A model generated the notes under the pieces. It was given only the letters and a program-made list of their open reading frames with translations, ran no database searches and was not told the origin of the DNA. A stretch of DNA of 64,000 bases from contig JAEUTH010000017.1 in the NCBI GenBank assembly GCA_016788165.1, forward strand, positions 124,001 to 188,000. The letters are read 5' to 3'. The DNA is from Bacteroidia bacterium (lineage in GTDB: Bacteria > Bacteroidota > Bacteroidia > AKYH767-A > OLB10). The stretch's first letter is position 1, and each line of letters opens with the position of its first letter. The position numbers and the translations under genes are program-made. Shown in pieces: positions 5,602 through 49,007 of this stretch.

Positions 5602-6558
5602 TTACATTTTACGCTTAATACTTTTAAGTGCAGCATTAACAATAGCTTGTGCATGTAAACCATATTTTTCGAGCAGTTCTTCGGGTTTGCCACTTTCGCC
5701 AAACGAATCGTTTACTCCCACCATTTCGATAGGGCGGGGTAGGTTGCAAACCAATGTTTGTGCTATGGCATCGCCTAAACCTCCATTTAGTTGATGTTCT
5801 TCGGCTGTAACTGCACAGCCTGTTTTTTTTACAGATTGTATGACTGTATTAACATCTAATGGTTTAATGGTGTGTATATTAATTATCTCGGCATCTATAC
5901 CTTGTTGGGCTAAAATATGGCCGGCTTCAATTGCTTTCCATACTAAATGGCCTGTTGCAAAAATAGAAACATCAGCGCCTGTATTAAGTGTTACGGCTTT
6001 ACCTATTTCAAAAATTTGATCCGGGCTTGTAAAGTTAGGTACTACCGGCCTGCCAAAGCGCAAATAAACAGGGCCTTGATGTTGTGCAATAGCAATTGTG
6101 GCTGCCATAGTTTGGTTATAATCGCATGGATTAATTACTACCATGCCCGGCAACATTCGCATCATACCTACGTCTTCCAATATCTGATGTGTGGCACCAT
6201 CTTCGCCAAGGGTTAAACCGGCATGTGAGGCACATATTTTTACGTTTTTACCCGAGTAAGCAATTGATTGACGTATTTGATCATAAACACGGCCTGTCGA
6301 AAAATTGGCAAATGTGCCCGTAAAAGGAATTTTGCCACCTATAGTTAAACCGGCTGCAATACCCATCATATTGGCTTCGGCTATACCTACCTGAAAAAAC
6401 CTGTCGGGATGGGCTTTGGCAAATGCATCCATTTTTAATGATCCGGTTAAATCGGCACATAGTGCAACCACATTTTTATTGGTTTTACCTAAGTATGTTA
6501 AACCGGCTCCAAAGCCTGAGCGCGTATCTTTTTTATCAAGTATGGTATAGGTTTGCAT
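5602..6558 (-). CDS. Transketolase, C-terminal subunit (pyrimidine-binding and C domains)
   Basis: 318 residues, the length of the C half of a split transketolase. TPP-pyrimidine domain signatures are visible: FFQVGIAEANMMGIAAGL (with the catalytic Glu), TFANFSTGRVYDQIRQSIAY, and SHAGLTLGEDGATHQ. The C-terminal domain carries AVTAEEHQLNGGLGDAIA. With the N half it should transfer two-carbon ketol units in the non-oxidative pentose phosphate pathway. Unusually, the two halves are not adjacent: a 466-residue VWA protein gene lies between them on the same strand (gaps 31 and 12 bases). Sequence assignment is secure; the partnership with the N half is inferred. Confidence 0.92.
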   Translation of the reverse strand: MQTYTILDKKDTRSGFGAGLTYLGKTNKNVVALCADLTGSLKMDAFAKAHPDRFFQVGIAEANMMGIAAGLTIGGKIPFTGTFANFSTGRVYDQIRQSIAYSGKNVKICASHAGLTLGEDGATHQILEDVGMMRMLPGMVVINPCDYNQTMAATIAIAQHQGPVYLRFGRPVVPNFTSPDQIFEIGKAVTLNTGADVSIFATGHLVWKAIEAGHILAQQGIDAEIINIHTIKPLDVNTVIQSVKKTGCAVTAEEHQLNGGLGDAIAQTLVCNLPRPIEMVGVNDSFGESGKPEELLEKYGLHAQAIVNAALKSIKRKM

Positions 6559-6589
6559 TTTACTTGTTCGAATATGTATTGGTGTTTAA

Positions 6590-7990
6590 TTAATTTATTG
6601 TTACCGACACCGAACTGCCCGATGCCACTTTAAATGATTTTTCGATGCTGTATTCGGCCTCAACAGCATTTTTGCTCCTAAATAGTACTCTATAATTGCC
6701 GGGTTGCAATACAAATGTTTGGCGCATTTGTAAGGCATCTAAATTTACAACCCATTTTAATTCATCTTTATCTTCCTGTACAATACAGCCATAACCTACT
6801 GTATTTAAAAGCATGGTTGCAATACCCGGATTGGGTATTTGCACCGTGGTTGTATGACTTTGCGAAATTACTACATCATTAATTTTAAAGCGAGGCAGGC
6901 ATAAAACTTCTAAGTCGTAATCGCCAATCAAATACCGCTCTTTTGTATTAAAGTCTTGTACATGTAAGGTTTCATTTTTTCCTTTTAACCTTACAATACA
7001 CTTTAAGTTTTTGTACTCGGAGTTGCCATCATATTTCAGCAACAGGTCGCCTTGGGGTGCATCAATGCCTATTGTTGTGTGTTTGCCAGGGGTAAGCTTA
7101 ACGGGTTGTGTAGTACTTACCGTAGGTATGGTGTGTGCAATAATGTTGTAGGTGGTAAGTGGGTCAATGCGCAAGGTATCGGGGTTGCCTTTGGCGTTGA
7201 GTGTATGCATAAAGTTATAGGCTACGGCACCGTTGTTGGCATTATAAAAAGTTAGGGCCACATTGGTTTCTGTAGGTTTTTGATTGGCATCGAGTAAATT
7301 AACCTGACAAGTTGTATTGTTTAGCGCTTGCGAAATAACTACATTTAATGCTGAGGCAAACTGGGCTTCGTTTTGTGCATCATAGAAGTTGCCAACACAT
7401 TCAAATTGTTTTAAGTAATCTTTATTTATGCCCAAACCAATAACAAAAGGTTTTAGAATGATGCCTTTCTTTTGTAAAGCTGCTGATACAGCGCATGGGT
7501 CGCCATTACATTCTTCAATACCATCGGTAATAAGTATGATGATATTGCGATAGTTGCCAAAGCTGAAATCGCCTGCACTGGCTTCTAATGAGCGTGCAAT
7601 AGGTGTAGTACCGCTGGGCTTTATTTCGTTTAGTTTGTTCTTAATTTTATCGAAATTGTTTTTTGCAAATGGTACTTCTAAACGCGTATCGTCACAATCT
7701 TGCGGTGGGTATCTTTTAGTATGACCAAATACACGCAATGCAAGCTCCAGGTTGGGCGTGGTTTTTAGGCTGTCTAATATAGCCGATACCATTCTTTTTG
7801 CTACTTCATAACGTGTGCCGGTTTCCCACTTAGCCAACATGCTTTGCGAGTCATCGTATAATAATAATATGCGTGTAACCTGAGTTTCGATTTTTTTTGC
7901 AGGCCGGGCAGTTTGTGCAGAGCATGAAAAGTGCAAATTGCTTAACAAGCAAAATATAAACAGCAGTAACGGTTTGAGACTAAACTTCAA
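6590..7990 (-). CDS. Secreted von Willebrand factor A domain protein
   Basis: 466 residues with a signal peptide (residues 1-25, ending FSCSAQ; the Cys could also make it a lipoprotein). The VWA domain spans about 38-225. Its MIDAS metal site is complete: D46-x-S48-x-S50 (DDSQS), the Thr of SGTTPIARS, and the Asp of LITDGIEECNGD. The C-terminal half is beta-rich, without enzyme motifs, and looks like carboxypeptidase-regulatory or Ig-like modules. It probably binds another protein or ligand in a metal-dependent way in the periplasm or at the cell surface. It lies between the two transketolase halves with short gaps, so it is probably co-transcribed; no metabolic link is obvious. Confidence 0.85.
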   Translation of the reverse strand: MKFSLKPLLLFIFCLLSNLHFSCSAQTARPAKKIETQVTRILLLYDDSQSMLAKWETGTRYEVAKRMVSAILDSLKTTPNLELALRVFGHTKRYPPQDCDDTRLEVPFAKNNFDKIKNKLNEIKPSGTTPIARSLEASAGDFSFGNYRNIIILITDGIEECNGDPCAVSAALQKKGIILKPFVIGLGINKDYLKQFECVGNFYDAQNEAQFASALNVVISQALNNTTCQVNLLDANQKPTETNVALTFYNANNGAVAYNFMHTLNAKGNPDTLRIDPLTTYNIIAHTIPTVSTTQPVKLTPGKHTTIGIDAPQGDLLLKYDGNSEYKNLKCIVRLKGKNETLHVQDFNTKERYLIGDYDLEVLCLPRFKINDVVISQSHTTTVQIPNPGIATMLLNTVGYGCIVQEDKDELKWVVNLDALQMRQTFVLQPGNYRVLFRSKNAVEAEYSIEKSFKVASGSSVSVTIN

Positions 7991-8002
7991 AATTATACAG
8001 GT

Positions 8003-8848
8003 TTAATAATCGCCAATGGTTTCGGGTAGTTGTTGCAGTGCTTGTTCAAGTTGGGCATCGTTAGGTGCAATACCGTGCCACTTGTGTGAGTGCATCATAA
8101 AATCAACACCATTGCCCATAACGGTATGCATCATAATAGCAATGGGTTTGCCTTGATTACATTGTAGTTTGGCTTTTTCTAAAACCTGAATAACTTCGGC
8201 AATATCACCTCCGTTTTTTATAGTTAATACTTGCCAGCCGAAAGCTTCAAACTTAAGTGCAATGTTTCCAAGTGGTAATACTTCATCGGTAGCGCCATCA
8301 ATTTGCTGCCCGTTTAAATCTACTGTTGCAATTATATTATCAACCTTTTTAGCGGCTGCATAAATAGCAGCTTCCCAAACCTGACCTTCGCCTAACTCGC
8401 CATCACCCATCAGAACATAAACTAATTTGTCATCGCCATTAAGTTTTTTACTTTGAGCAGCTCCCAAAGCAACAGATAAACCTTGGCCTAATGAGCCACT
8501 GGCTACACGTACACCCGGCAAATGTTCATGCGTGGTAGGGTGTCCTTGTAAGCGTGTATTTATAAACCTGAAGGTGGCTAACTCGGCTACATCAAAGTAT
8601 CCACTTCGTGCTAACACACTATACCATACCGGACTAATATGTCCGTTCGACAGAAAAAATAAATCCTGTCCAATACCATTCATATCAAACGGTTTCGGTT
8701 GATGATACATTATTTGGTTGTACAACGCTACCATAAACTCAACACAACCTAATGAACCACCGGGATGTCCTGATTGTGCACCATGTACCATACGTACAAT
8801 GTCGCGTCTGGTTTGTGTACAGATGTTTTTCAAATTTTCGGTTTCCAT
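8003..8848 (-). CDS. Transketolase, N-terminal subunit (TPP-diphosphate domain)
   Basis: 281 residues, the normal length of the N half of a split transketolase. Conserved motifs: VHGAQSGHPGGSLG near residue 20, FFLSNGHISPVWYS, VASGSLGQGLSVALGAA, and the TPP/metal motif GDGELGEGQVWEAA followed by DLNGQQIDG. The last residues are ETIGDY. It provides the diphosphate-binding half of the active site and needs the C half encoded at 5602-6558. It is the first gene of the apparent six-gene minus-strand operon. A candidate -7 box lies 69 bases upstream and a perfect inverted repeat lies between that box and the ATG. Confidence 0.92.
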   Translation of the reverse strand: METENLKNICTQTRRDIVRMVHGAQSGHPGGSLGCVEFMVALYNQIMYHQPKPFDMNGIGQDLFFLSNGHISPVWYSVLARSGYFDVAELATFRFINTRLQGHPTTHEHLPGVRVASGSLGQGLSVALGAAQSKKLNGDDKLVYVLMGDGELGEGQVWEAAIYAAAKKVDNIIATVDLNGQQIDGATDEVLPLGNIALKFEAFGWQVLTIKNGGDIAEVIQVLEKAKLQCNQGKPIAIMMHTVMGNGVDFMMHSHKWHGIAPNDAQLEQALQQLPETIGDY

Positions 8849-8882: not shown

Positions 8883-8913
8883 CGTATAAAGCAGCATATT
8901 TGGGCTTTATACG
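8883..8913. promoter_or_regulatory. Perfect 10-bp inverted repeat in the transketolase operon leader
   Basis: CGTATAAAGC at 8883-8892 is the exact reverse complement of GCTTTATACG at 8904-8913, with an 11-base spacer. On the minus strand it begins about five bases after the candidate -7 box, so it would cover the transcription start or form a hairpin at the 5' end of the mRNA. No T-run follows it, so it is not a terminator. It is either an operator for a dimeric regulator or a leader hairpin; the sequence cannot tell which. Confidence 0.65.
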
Positions 8914-8917
8914 GATG

Positions 8918-8925
8918 CAAAAGTA
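8918..8925 (-). promoter_or_regulatory. Candidate -7 box (TACTTTTG) of the transketolase operon
   Basis: Read on the minus strand the sequence is TACTTTTG, an exact TAnnTTTG match. The nearest TTTG upstream is 25 bases away (8951-8954), longer than the usual spacing of about 19. The predicted transcript would start near 8912 and have a leader of about 65 bases containing the inverted repeat. Confidence 0.4.
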
Positions 8926-8990
8926 TTTTTTAATTAGGGCCTGTTTAGCTCAAATTATTAACATTGCGTTGATAAGTGTTTTTAGAAAAG

Positions 8991-10865
8991 TTATTCTAAA
9001 GTTTTGTTATCTAACTTTTCATACATGCTGTTATTACTTTTATAATCAGGTACTATTTGTTTCATTAAAAAAACCAATGGTTCATTTACTCCTTCATTAA
9101 GTTTTATTTCTAATAGCGCTAATTGATGTTGTATATTATCAAATTGCGGGGGCGTTACTTTAGCAATCATAATTTTTTTATGCTGTGTGGCATTGGTGTT
9201 TTCATGGTCGTTAAGTAATTCTTCATACAGTTTTTCGCCCGGTCTTAAACCGGTGTAAACAATTTCAATATCCTTTCCTAAAGTAAGTCCTGATAGTTTA
9301 ATCATCTTTTGTGCTAAGTCGGCTATTTTTACGGGGATGCCCATGTCAAACACTAAAATTTCGCCCGTATTGCCCATGCTTGCTGCTTGCAAAACCAACT
9401 GACAGGCTTCGGGTATCGTCATAAAATAGCGTGTAATTTCGGGGTGGGTAACCGTTATGCTTTTACCGGCTTCTATTTGAGATTTAAAAATAGGTATAAC
9501 CGAGCCATTACTGCCCAATACATTGCCAAAACGTGTGGTAATAAATTTGGTTTTGCTTACAGTAGCTAACGATTGCACATACATTTCGGCAATGCGTTTA
9601 CTGGCGCCCATAATATTGGTTGGGTTTACAGCTTTGTCGGTACTGATGAGTACAAAAGTTTGCACATTATATTGATGGGCTAAATGTGCTACTATTTTTG
9701 TGCCTACTACATTGGTTCTGATGGCTTCGCTTGCATTGCTTTCCATTAAAGGTACGTGCTTGTAAGCAGCGGCATGAAAAACGATGTGTGGTTTAAATGT
9801 TTGAAAAACTTTTTCGACCCTGTTTTGATTTCTGATATTGCCAACAATGGTTTCGCAGATGGTTGCCCATGGTTGTAATTCTAATTCAATTGCATGCAGG
9901 GGCGACTCGGCACAATCAAACAATAGAATTTTGGCAGGATTAAACTTGAGTATTTGACGTACCAACTCGCTGCCAATACTACCGGCTGCACCGGTTACCA
10001 ATACCACTTTGTTCGATAATGTTTGCTGTAAATCGTGTAAGCTTAACTGAATAGGCTCGCGTTCCAACAAGTCTTCAACCTTTACATTCTTAATTTGGTT
10101 AAAGCTTAACTCCCCCTTAATCCAATTACCTACCGGAGGTACATTTAAAACGCTTGTATTATGTACCAAACAAGCTTCAATAATTTCGGCCTTGCGTTTG
10201 GCGCTTACATTTTGTATAGAAATAATTACATGGGCTACGTGGTTTTGTTTTAATAAGTCTTTTAAGCCATCGGTATCAATTATTTCAATGCCTTCTAATT
10301 TACGGTTTACTTTGTTTTTATCATCATCAACAAAAGCTAAAACTTTATACTTGCTACCGGCATCGCGGTCTAAGGTTCGTTTGGTAATAACACCACTTTG
10401 ACCCGCACCGTAAATTATAACATTGCTTTTTTGGCTCGATGGATTTGTAATTTCATTATAAGTAACTTTTACCGCCAAACGGCCGGCAACCATTACAAAC
10501 ACAGCAATAAAATAATCAATAATTAAAATTGAAAAAGGCACAACATACTTTTGTGTAAAAAAGTAACTCACTAAATTTATAAATGATAAAAATAAAGAGC
10601 CTGATGCCAGTGTGAGTAATATACGAAGCGAGTCGCGTGTGCTGGTGTATCTGATAATTCCAGCGTAAGTTTTGAAAATTAAAAAACATAAAATGCGAAC
10701 CGAAATAACAGCCGGAAACGTATAATGCCAGGTAGCTATTTCCTGCTCAGGTATTTTAAAATTGAACCTGAGTAAATACGCAGCCATTAGCGAACACAGA
10801 CAAATTGTAATGTCAATGATTAATACAATCCAACGGGGTGTGTTTTTAGCTAAAAGAAATTGCAC
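8991..10865 (-). CDS. Membrane-anchored nucleotide-sugar 4,6-dehydratase/epimerase (CapD/PglF/WbpM family)
   Basis: About 624 residues from a GTG at 10865. The frame stays open to an ATG at 10955, but those 30 residues do not resemble the family, whose members usually begin about ten residues before TPRW. Order: four membrane spans (first ~130 residues), a Rossmann-like domain (VIIYGAGQSGV), then a catalytic SDR domain (VVLVTGAAGSIGSELV) with STDKAVNPTNIMGASKR, where Met replaces the usual Tyr as in PglF-type UDP-GlcNAc 4,6-dehydratases. It should make a 4-keto-6-deoxy sugar for surface polysaccharide or glycan synthesis at the inner membrane. It is divergent from the epimerase gene at 11083. 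Confidence 0.88.
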   Translation of the reverse strand: MQFLLAKNTPRWIVLIIDITICLCSLMAAYLLRFNFKIPEQEIATWHYTFPAVISVRILCFLIFKTYAGIIRYTSTRDSLRILLTLASGSLFLSFINLVSYFFTQKYVVPFSILIIDYFIAVFVMVAGRLAVKVTYNEITNPSSQKSNVIIYGAGQSGVITKRTLDRDAGSKYKVLAFVDDDKNKVNRKLEGIEIIDTDGLKDLLKQNHVAHVIISIQNVSAKRKAEIIEACLVHNTSVLNVPPVGNWIKGELSFNQIKNVKVEDLLEREPIQLSLHDLQQTLSNKVVLVTGAAGSIGSELVRQILKFNPAKILLFDCAESPLHAIELELQPWATICETIVGNIRNQNRVEKVFQTFKPHIVFHAAAYKHVPLMESNASEAIRTNVVGTKIVAHLAHQYNVQTFVLISTDKAVNPTNIMGASKRIAEMYVQSLATVSKTKFITTRFGNVLGSNGSVIPIFKSQIEAGKSITVTHPEITRYFMTIPEACQLVLQAASMGNTGEILVFDMGIPVKIADLAQKMIKLSGLTLGKDIEIVYTGLRPGEKLYEELLNDHENTNATQHKKIMIAKVTPPQFDNIQHQLALLEIKLNEGVNEPLVFLMKQIVPDYKSNNSMYEKLDNKTLE

Positions 10866-11082
10866 AAGCAGTTTATTTTGAATGAGGCAAAGTAAAGAAC
10901 CAATTTTAAAGCAATGCAACAATGCTGCATAATTGTTTGGCTTTGAAAGTAACACTCACCAATAAAAAAGCGACTTTGGCAAAAATTATTGGTGTTGAGC
11001 TTTAATTCAATCTTGTAAAAGTTGCGGATATAAGTATTTTGCAAGCCCCCATATTTTTTTTTGACTATTTCTATAAGATTTT

Positions 11083-47382: not shown

Positions 47383-47390
47383 TACATTTG
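47383..47390 (+). promoter_or_regulatory. Candidate -7 box (TACATTTG) of the SRP RNA gene
   Basis: Exact TAnnTTTG match ending four bases before the predicted RNA 5' end at 47395. The same octamer occurs in the phaC promoter. The -33 position holds TTAC rather than TTTG. Confidence 0.6.
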
Positions 47391-47394
47391 TGCC

Positions 47395-47489
47395 GGGTAA
47401 GTCTTATACGACCAGCTCCTATGAACCTCCCCAGGACAGGAATGTAGCAAGGATAAATGGTTGAGCGGTGCGATGTAAGTAGCTTACCC
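47395..47489 (+). ncRNA. ffs: Signal recognition particle RNA (small bacterial type)
   Basis: About 95 bases. The ends GGGTAAG (47395-47401) and CTTACCC (47483-47489) pair, and the conserved central hairpin contains CAGGACAGGAATGTAGCAAGG, here noted only as the AGGAA and AGCAAGG elements of the Ffh-binding domain. A run of six T at 47491-47496 follows the closing stem and acts as terminator. It forms the SRP with Ffh for co-translational targeting. Confidence 0.93.
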
Positions 47490-47560
47490 ATTTTTTATTT
47501 AATGGTTTTGTGGTTTTCTGATTAGGGTTCCTATTTTTGGCCACTCAAAAAATAAATAAC

Positions 47561-48245: not shown

Positions 48246-49007
48246 GTGGTTAATAATTTACAATCCGTTAAACTGCGTATTGCGGCCTATTTATTTAAGT
48301 ATGCTTACCCGGTTTACAAAGTTTTGTATTATAATTTTAAGCAAGATAAGGATGCCTTTAATTTAAAATTTATTAAAGGCATATTAAAGCCCGGTGATAT
48401 TGCTGTTGATGTAGGAGCTAATATTGGTTTTTATACACAGTACCTGGCAAAATGTGTTGGTGCAACGGGCAAAGTTTGGGCCTTCGAACCCGATGCCATT
48501 AATTTTAAGCACCTAACCAATGCTGTTAAAAATTGGCCGCAGGTTATTTGCAAAAATCAGGCAGTTGCCGCACAAAACGGAAACCTGATACTATATGCCT
48601 CTGGCTTATTAAATATAGACCACCGTACCTATCAGCCGGCATCGTTTACGCACAGTTATTCCGTTAATAAAATTGCACTCGACCATGAGTTAAGTAATTG
48701 TACAGTGCGCTTAATTAAAATGGACATACAAGGATTTGAAATGGATGCATTGCAGGGAATGAAAAATTTATTGATGCAACCTGATGTTATTTTAATTAGT
48801 GAATTGTGGCCTTATGGTTTAAATGAAGCCGGAAGTAGTGCCATAGCCATGTTTGAATTTTTAAAAAATTTAGGTTTCGGAATTTATACAGAAAATAAAG
48901 GCAAACTACACCCGATTACGGGTAAAGAGGTAATGGAAATAAAGATTGATTTTATGGTGGATACCAATATTATTGCGGCTCGAAATATACCACCTGAGTT
49001 TTTATAA
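48246..49007 (+). CDS. FkbM-family methyltransferase
   Basis: 253 residues from a GTG start at 48246. SAM-binding motif I is DIAVDVGANIGFYTQYLAKC; WAFEPDAINFKHL and IKMDIQGFEMDALQGM are FkbM signatures. It probably O-methylates a sugar or other small hydroxyl compound. Its stop overlaps the start of the next methyltransferase by one base (TAATG), so the two are translationally coupled. Confidence 0.88.
   Translation: MVNNLQSVKLRIAAYLFKYAYPVYKVLYYNFKQDKDAFNLKFIKGILKPGDIAVDVGANIGFYTQYLAKCVGATGKVWAFEPDAINFKHLTNAVKNWPQVICKNQAVAAQNGNLILYASGLLNIDHRTYQPASFTHSYSVNKIALDHELSNCTVRLIKMDIQGFEMDALQGMKNLLMQPDVILISELWPYGLNEAGSSAIAMFEFLKNLGFGIYTENKGKLHPITGKEVMEIKIDFMVDTNIIAARNIPPEFL

What the first reader, a model, noticed from the sequence alone, without database searches (positions are those of the whole stretch)
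8883..8925. Perfect 10-bp inverted repeat at the start of the transketolase operon
CGTATAAAGC-N11-GCTTTATACG lies directly after a TACTTTTG -7 box, so it would occupy the transcription start region or the first 31 bases of the mRNA. It is the strongest non-coding inverted repeat I found that is not a terminator. It could be an operator or a 5' hairpin that affects stability or translation.
Basis: seen in the sequence. Interest (0 to 1): 0.55.

Follow-up and report, generated by a model that had tools for sequence, protein, structure and literature searches.

The report
Lineage-specific 5' hairpin before transketolase operon
The mirror-image repeat is real and sits where the transketolase messenger RNA should begin, but it was not seen in any of the relatives examined; the shared signal of this promoter is a short DNA-box element a little further upstream.

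Summary
CGTATAAAGC-N11-GCTTTATACG lies exactly at 8883-8913 (-), four bases after a TACTTTTG -7 box. By the Flavobacterium box-to-start spacing its first base (8913) is the predicted +1, so it would be the 5'-terminal hairpin of the tktN-VWA-tktC mRNA. Such a repeat is rare in leaders (0.1% of shuffles; the only non-terminator case among 103 leaders on 0.975 Mb of this genome), but one per genome could still be luck. It has no second copy, no Rfam match and no T-run. In the 85 other tktN leaders that could be measured, no repeat exceeds 6 bp and leaders are mostly about 25 nt (own: 69). No same-genus genome was available. Most likely: a lineage-specific 5'-terminal stem affecting mRNA stability, or a neutral repeat; operator and start-codon-switch readings are weaker.

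Unexpected: tktN promoters share a DnaA-box-like 9-mer, TTWTYMACA, mostly 35-63 bp before the -7 box. A scan of 149 genomes for two boxes plus -7 box gave 21 matches, all directly upstream of tktN, 17 of them outside the set the motif came from. The strict pattern misses the other 128 genomes, this one included; the window carries an inverted variant at 8955-8975.

The parts
8883..8913 (-). perfect inverted repeat CGTATAAAGC-N11-GCTTTATACG; predicted 5'-terminal hairpin of the tkt mRNA
   Evidence: (hairpin alone -10.1 kcal/mol)
8918..8925 (-). TACTTTTG, sigma-A -7 box (TAnnTTTG)
   Evidence: TAnnTTTG within the last 130 nt in 86 of 110 tktN upstream regions
8913..8913 (-). predicted transcription start (+1), by transfer of the F. 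psychrophilum spacing
   Evidence: inference and coordinates; not mapped
8955..8975 (-). inverted pair TTATCAAC-GCAAT-GTTAATAA: local form of the TTWTYMACA element of tktN promoters (one half an exact 9-mer)
8840..8848 (-). start-codon region able to pair with the 5' arm of the repeat in an alternative fold
   Evidence: not beyond chance
8003..8848 (-). tktN, transketolase N-terminal half
   Evidence: Transketolase_N, 1.4e-48
6590..7990 (-). VWA-domain protein between the transketolase halves
   Evidence: found in 49 of 110 tktN loci, own included, within the fetched flanks
5602..6558 (-). tktC, transketolase C-terminal half
   Evidence: Transket_pyr, Transketolase_C

Best explanation
The repeat is a lineage-specific stem-loop that forms the very 5' end of the tktN-VWA-tktC mRNA. 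Transcription from the TACTTTTG promoter is predicted to start at its first base. The nascent RNA would then begin with a 9-10 bp stem with no or almost no unpaired 5' nucleotide, 34 nt before the start codon. Its most likely effect is on the mRNA 5' end: it would hinder 5'-end-dependent decay (RppH/RNase E/J type entry). Shown: the repeat, the box, the position, its rarity among leaders, and its absence in the relatives measured. Inferred: the start site, the fold in the cell, that the three genes share one mRNA, and any effect. Promoter control proper more likely acts through the TTWTYMACA element upstream than through the repeat (inference).
For: The box-to-start spacing puts +1 at the repeat's first base. 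Starting at C8913 or G8912, the hairpin is predicted with probability 0.99-1.0. It is the only >=10-bp, non-terminator repeat in 103 leaders on 0.975 Mb, with a shuffle frequency of 0.1%. No terminator call at this place, no other dyad copy at <=2 mismatches in the own genome, no Rfam match here. B. subtilis RppH requires at least two unpaired 5' nucleotides in vitro (PMC3997798, passage), so a flush stem would plausibly protect. Own leader is 69 nt against a median of 25.
Against: No repeat above 6 bp in any of the 85 other measurable leaders. 0.1% per leader times a few hundred leaders leaves a fair chance (my estimate, about 20-30%) of one such repeat somewhere in the genome by luck. If transcription starts two or more bases earlier, another fold wins and the hairpin drops to 12-14%. 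Even with the hairpin the start codon is predicted only 38-39% open. RNA decay enzymes of this organism were not examined.
Confidence: 0.4

Rival explanations
1. Chance: a neutral repeat in an unusually long leader, noticed because all repeats in the window were inspected.
For: Absent in the 85 other measurable leaders; ten-bp repeats of any kind are expected about 3 times per 64 kb; no second copy.
Against: About 0.1% per leader, 1 of 103 after setting terminators aside, and it coincides with the predicted +1.
Confidence: 0.33
2. Operator: a dimeric regulator binds the dyad (arm centres 21 bp apart, two helical turns) over +1 and blocks transcription.
For: Perfect symmetry at the predicted start site and same-face geometry (sequence).
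Against: One site at <=2 mismatches in the own genome and one more at 3, where the reversed control has none; in the 23 other family genomes 22 matches at 3 mismatches against 27 for the reversed control. Of the five neighbouring proteins scanned, the only DNA-binding regulator is the ECF sigma factor after tktC; regulators elsewhere were not searched.
Confidence: 0.15
3. Start-site switch: mRNAs starting at UCC fold the 5' arm onto the start codon (off), mRNAs starting at C or G form the hairpin (on), similar to the textbook E. coli pyrC scheme (recalled).
For: Predicted start-codon openness changes from 0.05 to 0.38-0.39 when the start moves from T8915 to C8913 or G8912; MFE -14.4 for the closed form.
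Against: With the repeat kept and the spacer shuffled, 59% of 500 sequences fold at least as well and 12.7% of 300 hide the start codon nearly as much; z only -1.75; no phylogenetic support.
Confidence: 0.06
4. Terminator or processing hairpin of the upstream polysaccharide gene.
For: It begins 77 nt after that gene's end, same strand.
Against: No T-run follows and the terminator scan finds none here; a promoter box lies between.
Confidence: 0.04

Closest known systems
5'-terminal stabilising stem-loops (E. coli ompA/papA, B. subtilis aprE leaders; titles seen in the reference list of PMC3997798)
   Same: stem at the predicted extreme 5' end, few or no unpaired 5' nucleotides, spaced from the start codon
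   Different: start site, half-life and the decay enzymes are unknown here; not conserved in the relatives measured; A+T-rich stem
Bacteroidota sigma-A promoter (TAnnTTTG at -7, TTTG near -33; PMC7366714 and PMC9723704, passages)
   Same: exact TACTTTTG box with a predicted start 5 nt on
   Different: no TTG 18-21 nt before the box here (not among the matches); a TTWTYMACA-type element lies further up
DnaA box (consensus TTWTNCACA, recalled)
   Same: the tktN element includes exact TTATCCACA/TTATTCACA in 8 of 44 collected 9-mers
   Different: 33 of the 44 end in AACA instead of CACA; one or two copies at promoter-locked spacing, no origin-like cluster in the 0.975 Mb examined; GC skew of contig C46 shows no switch

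Membership tests
5'-terminal stabilising stem-loop | stem begins within about 0-4 nt of the mRNA 5' end | tested here: inconclusive
   predicted +1 = 8913 = first stem base; not mapped
5'-terminal stabilising stem-loop | stem is stable and leaves the start codon open | tested here: inconclusive
   hairpin 0.99-1.0 and start codon 0.38-0.39 open for starts at 8913/8912; hairpin 0.12-0.14 and start codon 0.05-0.06 open for starts at 8915 or earlier
5'-terminal stabilising stem-loop | loss of pairing shortens mRNA half-life | not testable with these tools
   experiment needed
Operator of a dimeric regulator | dyad overlapping the promoter or start | tested here: met
   the start is predicted, not mapped
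Operator of a dimeric regulator | further sites in the genome or at orthologous promoters | tested here: not met
Known cis-regulatory RNA (Rfam) | covariance-model match at gathering score | tested here: not met
   the only listed match in the window is the SRP RNA at 47388-47493
Intrinsic terminator | G+C-rich stem followed by a T-run | tested here: not met
Bacteroidota sigma-A promoter | TAnnTTTG -7 box | tested here: met
Bacteroidota sigma-A promoter | TTG of the -33 element at 18-21 nt spacing | tested here: not met
   this promoter is not among the matches; published spacing is variable
DnaA-regulated promoter (for the upstream element) | DnaA binds the boxes | not testable with these tools
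   experiment needed; a tandem TTATNCACA scan of 21 genomes gave 3 matches (reversed control also 3) and no origin to compare with

The most novel reading that the evidence does not exclude
The transketolase N-half promoter, in much of the class this bacterium belongs to, is controlled through a dedicated site: one or two copies of a DnaA-box-like 9-mer, TTWTYMACA, held at preferred distances (about -35, -46 to -48, -56 and -63 from the start of the -7 box). The 9-mer alone is common, but the two-box-plus-promoter arrangement was found only before this one gene. A regulator would thus watch the pentose-phosphate branch alone; if it were DnaA (my guess about 1 in 8), nucleotide-precursor supply would be tied to replication initiation. 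The window's hairpin would be a recent, lineage-specific addition to that promoter.
Probability: 0.5. Interest if true: 0.55.

Novelty: new member of a known kind. Interest (0 to 1): 0.35.

Why it matters
The hairpin itself would be one more example of a 5'-end stem tuning a metabolic operon, in a phylum whose members naturally lack Shine-Dalgarno sequences (PMC6847099, abstract start in a search listing). The by-product is worth more: a promoter arrangement that a genome-scale pattern scan finds only upstream of transketolase, in 21 genomes of nine families. It points to an unidentified regulator of the pentose-phosphate pathway, and the binding protein can be sought directly.

Tried and rejected
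Replication origin at tktN: not supported for this genome. GC skew is positive in 36 of 43 five-kb bins of the 215-kb contig with no lasting switch, no box cluster exceeds two per 250 bp in the 0.975 Mb examined, and tandem TTATNCACA gave 3 matches in 21 genomes, as many as the reversed control.

Start-codon sequestration fold: looked attractive but is matched by shuffles.

Repeat as a mobile or repeated element: no other copy found. The 20/21 match at C46:97053 was printed and I took it, by eye and without a gene call, for coding sequence and a chance match.

5'-terminal hairpins as a general habit of this genome: the other strong, G+C-containing leader repeats, at C7:139146 and C22:114867, are followed by T-rich runs and look like terminators of the gene before.

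Results against the upstream element: a loose 8-mer version hits 42 of 72 tktN promoters but also 10 of 31 control promoters in the flanks and 4 of 24 own-contig promoters, tktN included. The 9-mer alone occurs 158 times on 0.975 Mb of the own genome. In the own genome the palindromic form TTATNAAC-N3-20-GTTNATAA occurs at 2 places while the reversed control has 4. In two GC-rich genomes GTTATCCACA occurs 2 and 4 times, one each at tktN, and reversed controls occur 4 and 9 times. Of the 6 hits of the second pattern one is not at tktN, and the five that are were in the set the pattern was drawn from. The tpiA control may be unfair: tpiA can lie inside operons without a promoter of its own.

Literature: the searches listed no paper that I recognised as dealing with this element or repeat. 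The listings are capped (for instance 10 of 242 and 8 of 3,685), the library is open-licence only, and one search returned unrelated papers, so the pyrC analogy is recalled. I make no claim that the element is absent from print.

Full report
What is there. On the minus strand the 142-bp gap before tktN reads: inverted box pair (8975-8955), TACTTTTG (8925-8918), CATC, then CGTATAAAGC-CCAAATATGCT-GCTTTATACG (8913-8883), 34 more bases, ATG at 8848. The arms are perfect and unique in the window. The genes are the N half of transketolase, a VWA-domain protein, the C half of transketolase and an ECF sigma factor. The start codon is firm: only a few codons of open frame precede it (286 against 281 aa).

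Is it more than chance? Counting all perfect >=10-bp repeats with 3-20 nt loops, the window has 9 where first-order random sequence gives 2.85 +/- 1.7, so the bare existence of a 10-bp repeat says little. Its place says more. Shuffles of the own 69-nt leader reach 10 bp in 0.1% of 12,000 trials, pooled leaders of contig C46 in 0.07% of 3,000. On 0.975 Mb of this genome (one whole contig and parts of four) I found 103 leaders of at least 25 nt between the last TAnnTTTG and an ATG, by a rough ORF call. Two carry 10-bp repeats, and the other one (C7:139146) is followed by TTTTCATTTT and reads as the terminator of the gene before. So it is the single non-terminator case of 103, but with a few hundred leaders in the genome one such repeat by luck is not excluded.

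Where would transcription start? In Flavobacterium psychrophilum the TAnnTTTG box occupies -12 to -5 and the median 5' UTR is 24 bp (PMC9723704, passages). Applied here, +1 is base 8913, the first base of the repeat. The RNA would then begin with the stem. Folding from 8913 or 8912 gives the hairpin with probability 0.99-1.0; from 8915 or earlier the 5' arm prefers the start-codon region (hairpin 0.12-0.14), and 8914 is mixed (0.65); from 8911 it is 0.74 and from 8910 0.31. The start-codon fold is not better than shuffled spacers allow (59% of 500 fold as well, 12.7% of 300 leave the start codon 5% open or less), so I do not build on it.

Is it conserved? In one search all 61 genomes have some match to the protein; 57 have a strong one (E <= 1e-100), the other four only weaker ones (G021, G034, G042, G057). 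I read 110 upstream regions: the 30 best loci (own included) and the 80 loci kept of 594 (itself a capped list). Two of the 110, L021 and L073, appear to be the same contig (equal contig length). In 86 a TAnnTTTG lies within 130 nt of the ATG; the other 24 were not measurable by this rule. The own leader is 69 nt with a 10-bp repeat; over the 86 the median is 25 nt, and the other 85 have no repeat above 6 bp. A DNA search of the 24-genome family finds the whole region only in the own genome. The dyad with up to 3 mismatches occurs 22 times in the 23 other family genomes against 27 for the reversed control. No genome of the same genus is among those searched, so the repeat could be conserved among closer relatives that I cannot see. 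On this evidence it is a lineage-specific feature, in a leader that is longer than usual.

Best reading. A 5'-terminal stem-loop that may slow 5'-end-dependent decay is the simplest mechanism fitting position and shape. A review states that purified B. subtilis RppH requires at least two unpaired 5' nucleotides (PMC3997798, passage), and the predicted RNA has none. This is inference; the decay machinery of this organism was not studied. Chance is nearly as likely. An operator is less likely because the dyad has no close second copy in the genome.

What turned up instead. The tktN upstream regions share two things: the -7 box and a 9-mer TTWTYMACA on either strand (TTTTCAACA 16, TTATTAACA 9, TTATCAACA 5, TTATCCACA 4, TTATTCACA 4 and rarer forms, 44 in all). 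Among 96 non-redundant regions the top 8-mers are the -7 box, then a TATCTTTG/GCAAAGAT family that I did not pursue, then GTTAATAA (26 against 2.9 expected) and GTTGAAAA (20 against 2.5). In 28 of 72 promoters with a usable -7 box an exact 9-mer lies at -70 to -25, where shuffles give 1.04 +/- 1.0 (maximum 4 over 200 rounds). Positions pile up at -35 to -37, -55 to -58 and -62 to -63, and the shorter form also at -46 to -48. Within 200 bp upstream it is found in 26 of 30 tktN loci and 2 of 30 tpiA loci; each set is the 30 best loci of a search of the same 61 genomes, so the genomes overlap but are not identical. The motif was drawn from tktN loci, so that comparison favours tktN, and tpiA may lack a promoter of its own.

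The cleaner test is a genome-wide pattern scan: TTTTCAACA, 9-13 bases, TTWTYAACA, 22-28 bases, TANNTTTG, in 149 genomes of the class. It found 21 matches in 21 genomes (nine families, ten genera) and none with the reversed control. All 21 have tktN directly downstream (12 loci, the other 9). A second pattern gave 6 matches in 61 genomes: 5 at tktN, all from the set it was drawn from, and 1 elsewhere.

Limits. The strict pattern misses 128 of 149 genomes, the own genome included; 44 of 72 usable promoters lack an exact 9-mer in the interval; the 9-mer alone is common (158 on 0.975 Mb); and the loose form also occurs at 10 of 31 control promoters. The window's own form is an inverted pair, TTATCAAC-GCAAT-GTTAATAA, whose lower edge is 29 bp before the -7 box and in which one half is an exact 9-mer; its belonging to the same element is inference from letters and place. 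Whether the binder is DnaA, whose box it resembles, is open: contig C46 shows no origin and I found no origin to compare with.

Verdict. The wider lead at this promoter is the transketolase-associated upstream element.

Noticed in passing
8955-8975, and tktN promoters of many related genomes: DnaA-box-like element TTWTYMACA at preferred spacings before the -7 box; a two-box pattern scan of 149 genomes hit only tktN promoters, 21 of 21.
   Followed up: partly
5602-8848: A VWA-domain gene sits between the two transketolase halves, and a VWA relative near tktN is found in 49 of 110 loci, own included, within the fetched flanks; why it travels with transketolase is unclear.
   Followed up: partly
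48352-48382: Perfect 11-bp inverted repeat ATGCCTTTAAT/ATTAAAGGCAT overlapping no ATG-started ORF of 90 aa or more.
   Followed up: no
47388-47493: Bacteroidales-type small SRP RNA (RF04183, 95 bits).
   Followed up: no
upstream regions of tktN in related loci: A second enriched word, GCAAAGAT(A)/TATCTTTG (23 and 18 of 96 regions against about 1 expected); it may be the -7 box of a divergent gene.
   Followed up: no
8991-10955: The polysaccharide gene upstream of tktN is found next to tktN in this genome only (1 of 110 loci, within the fetched flanks).
   Followed up: no
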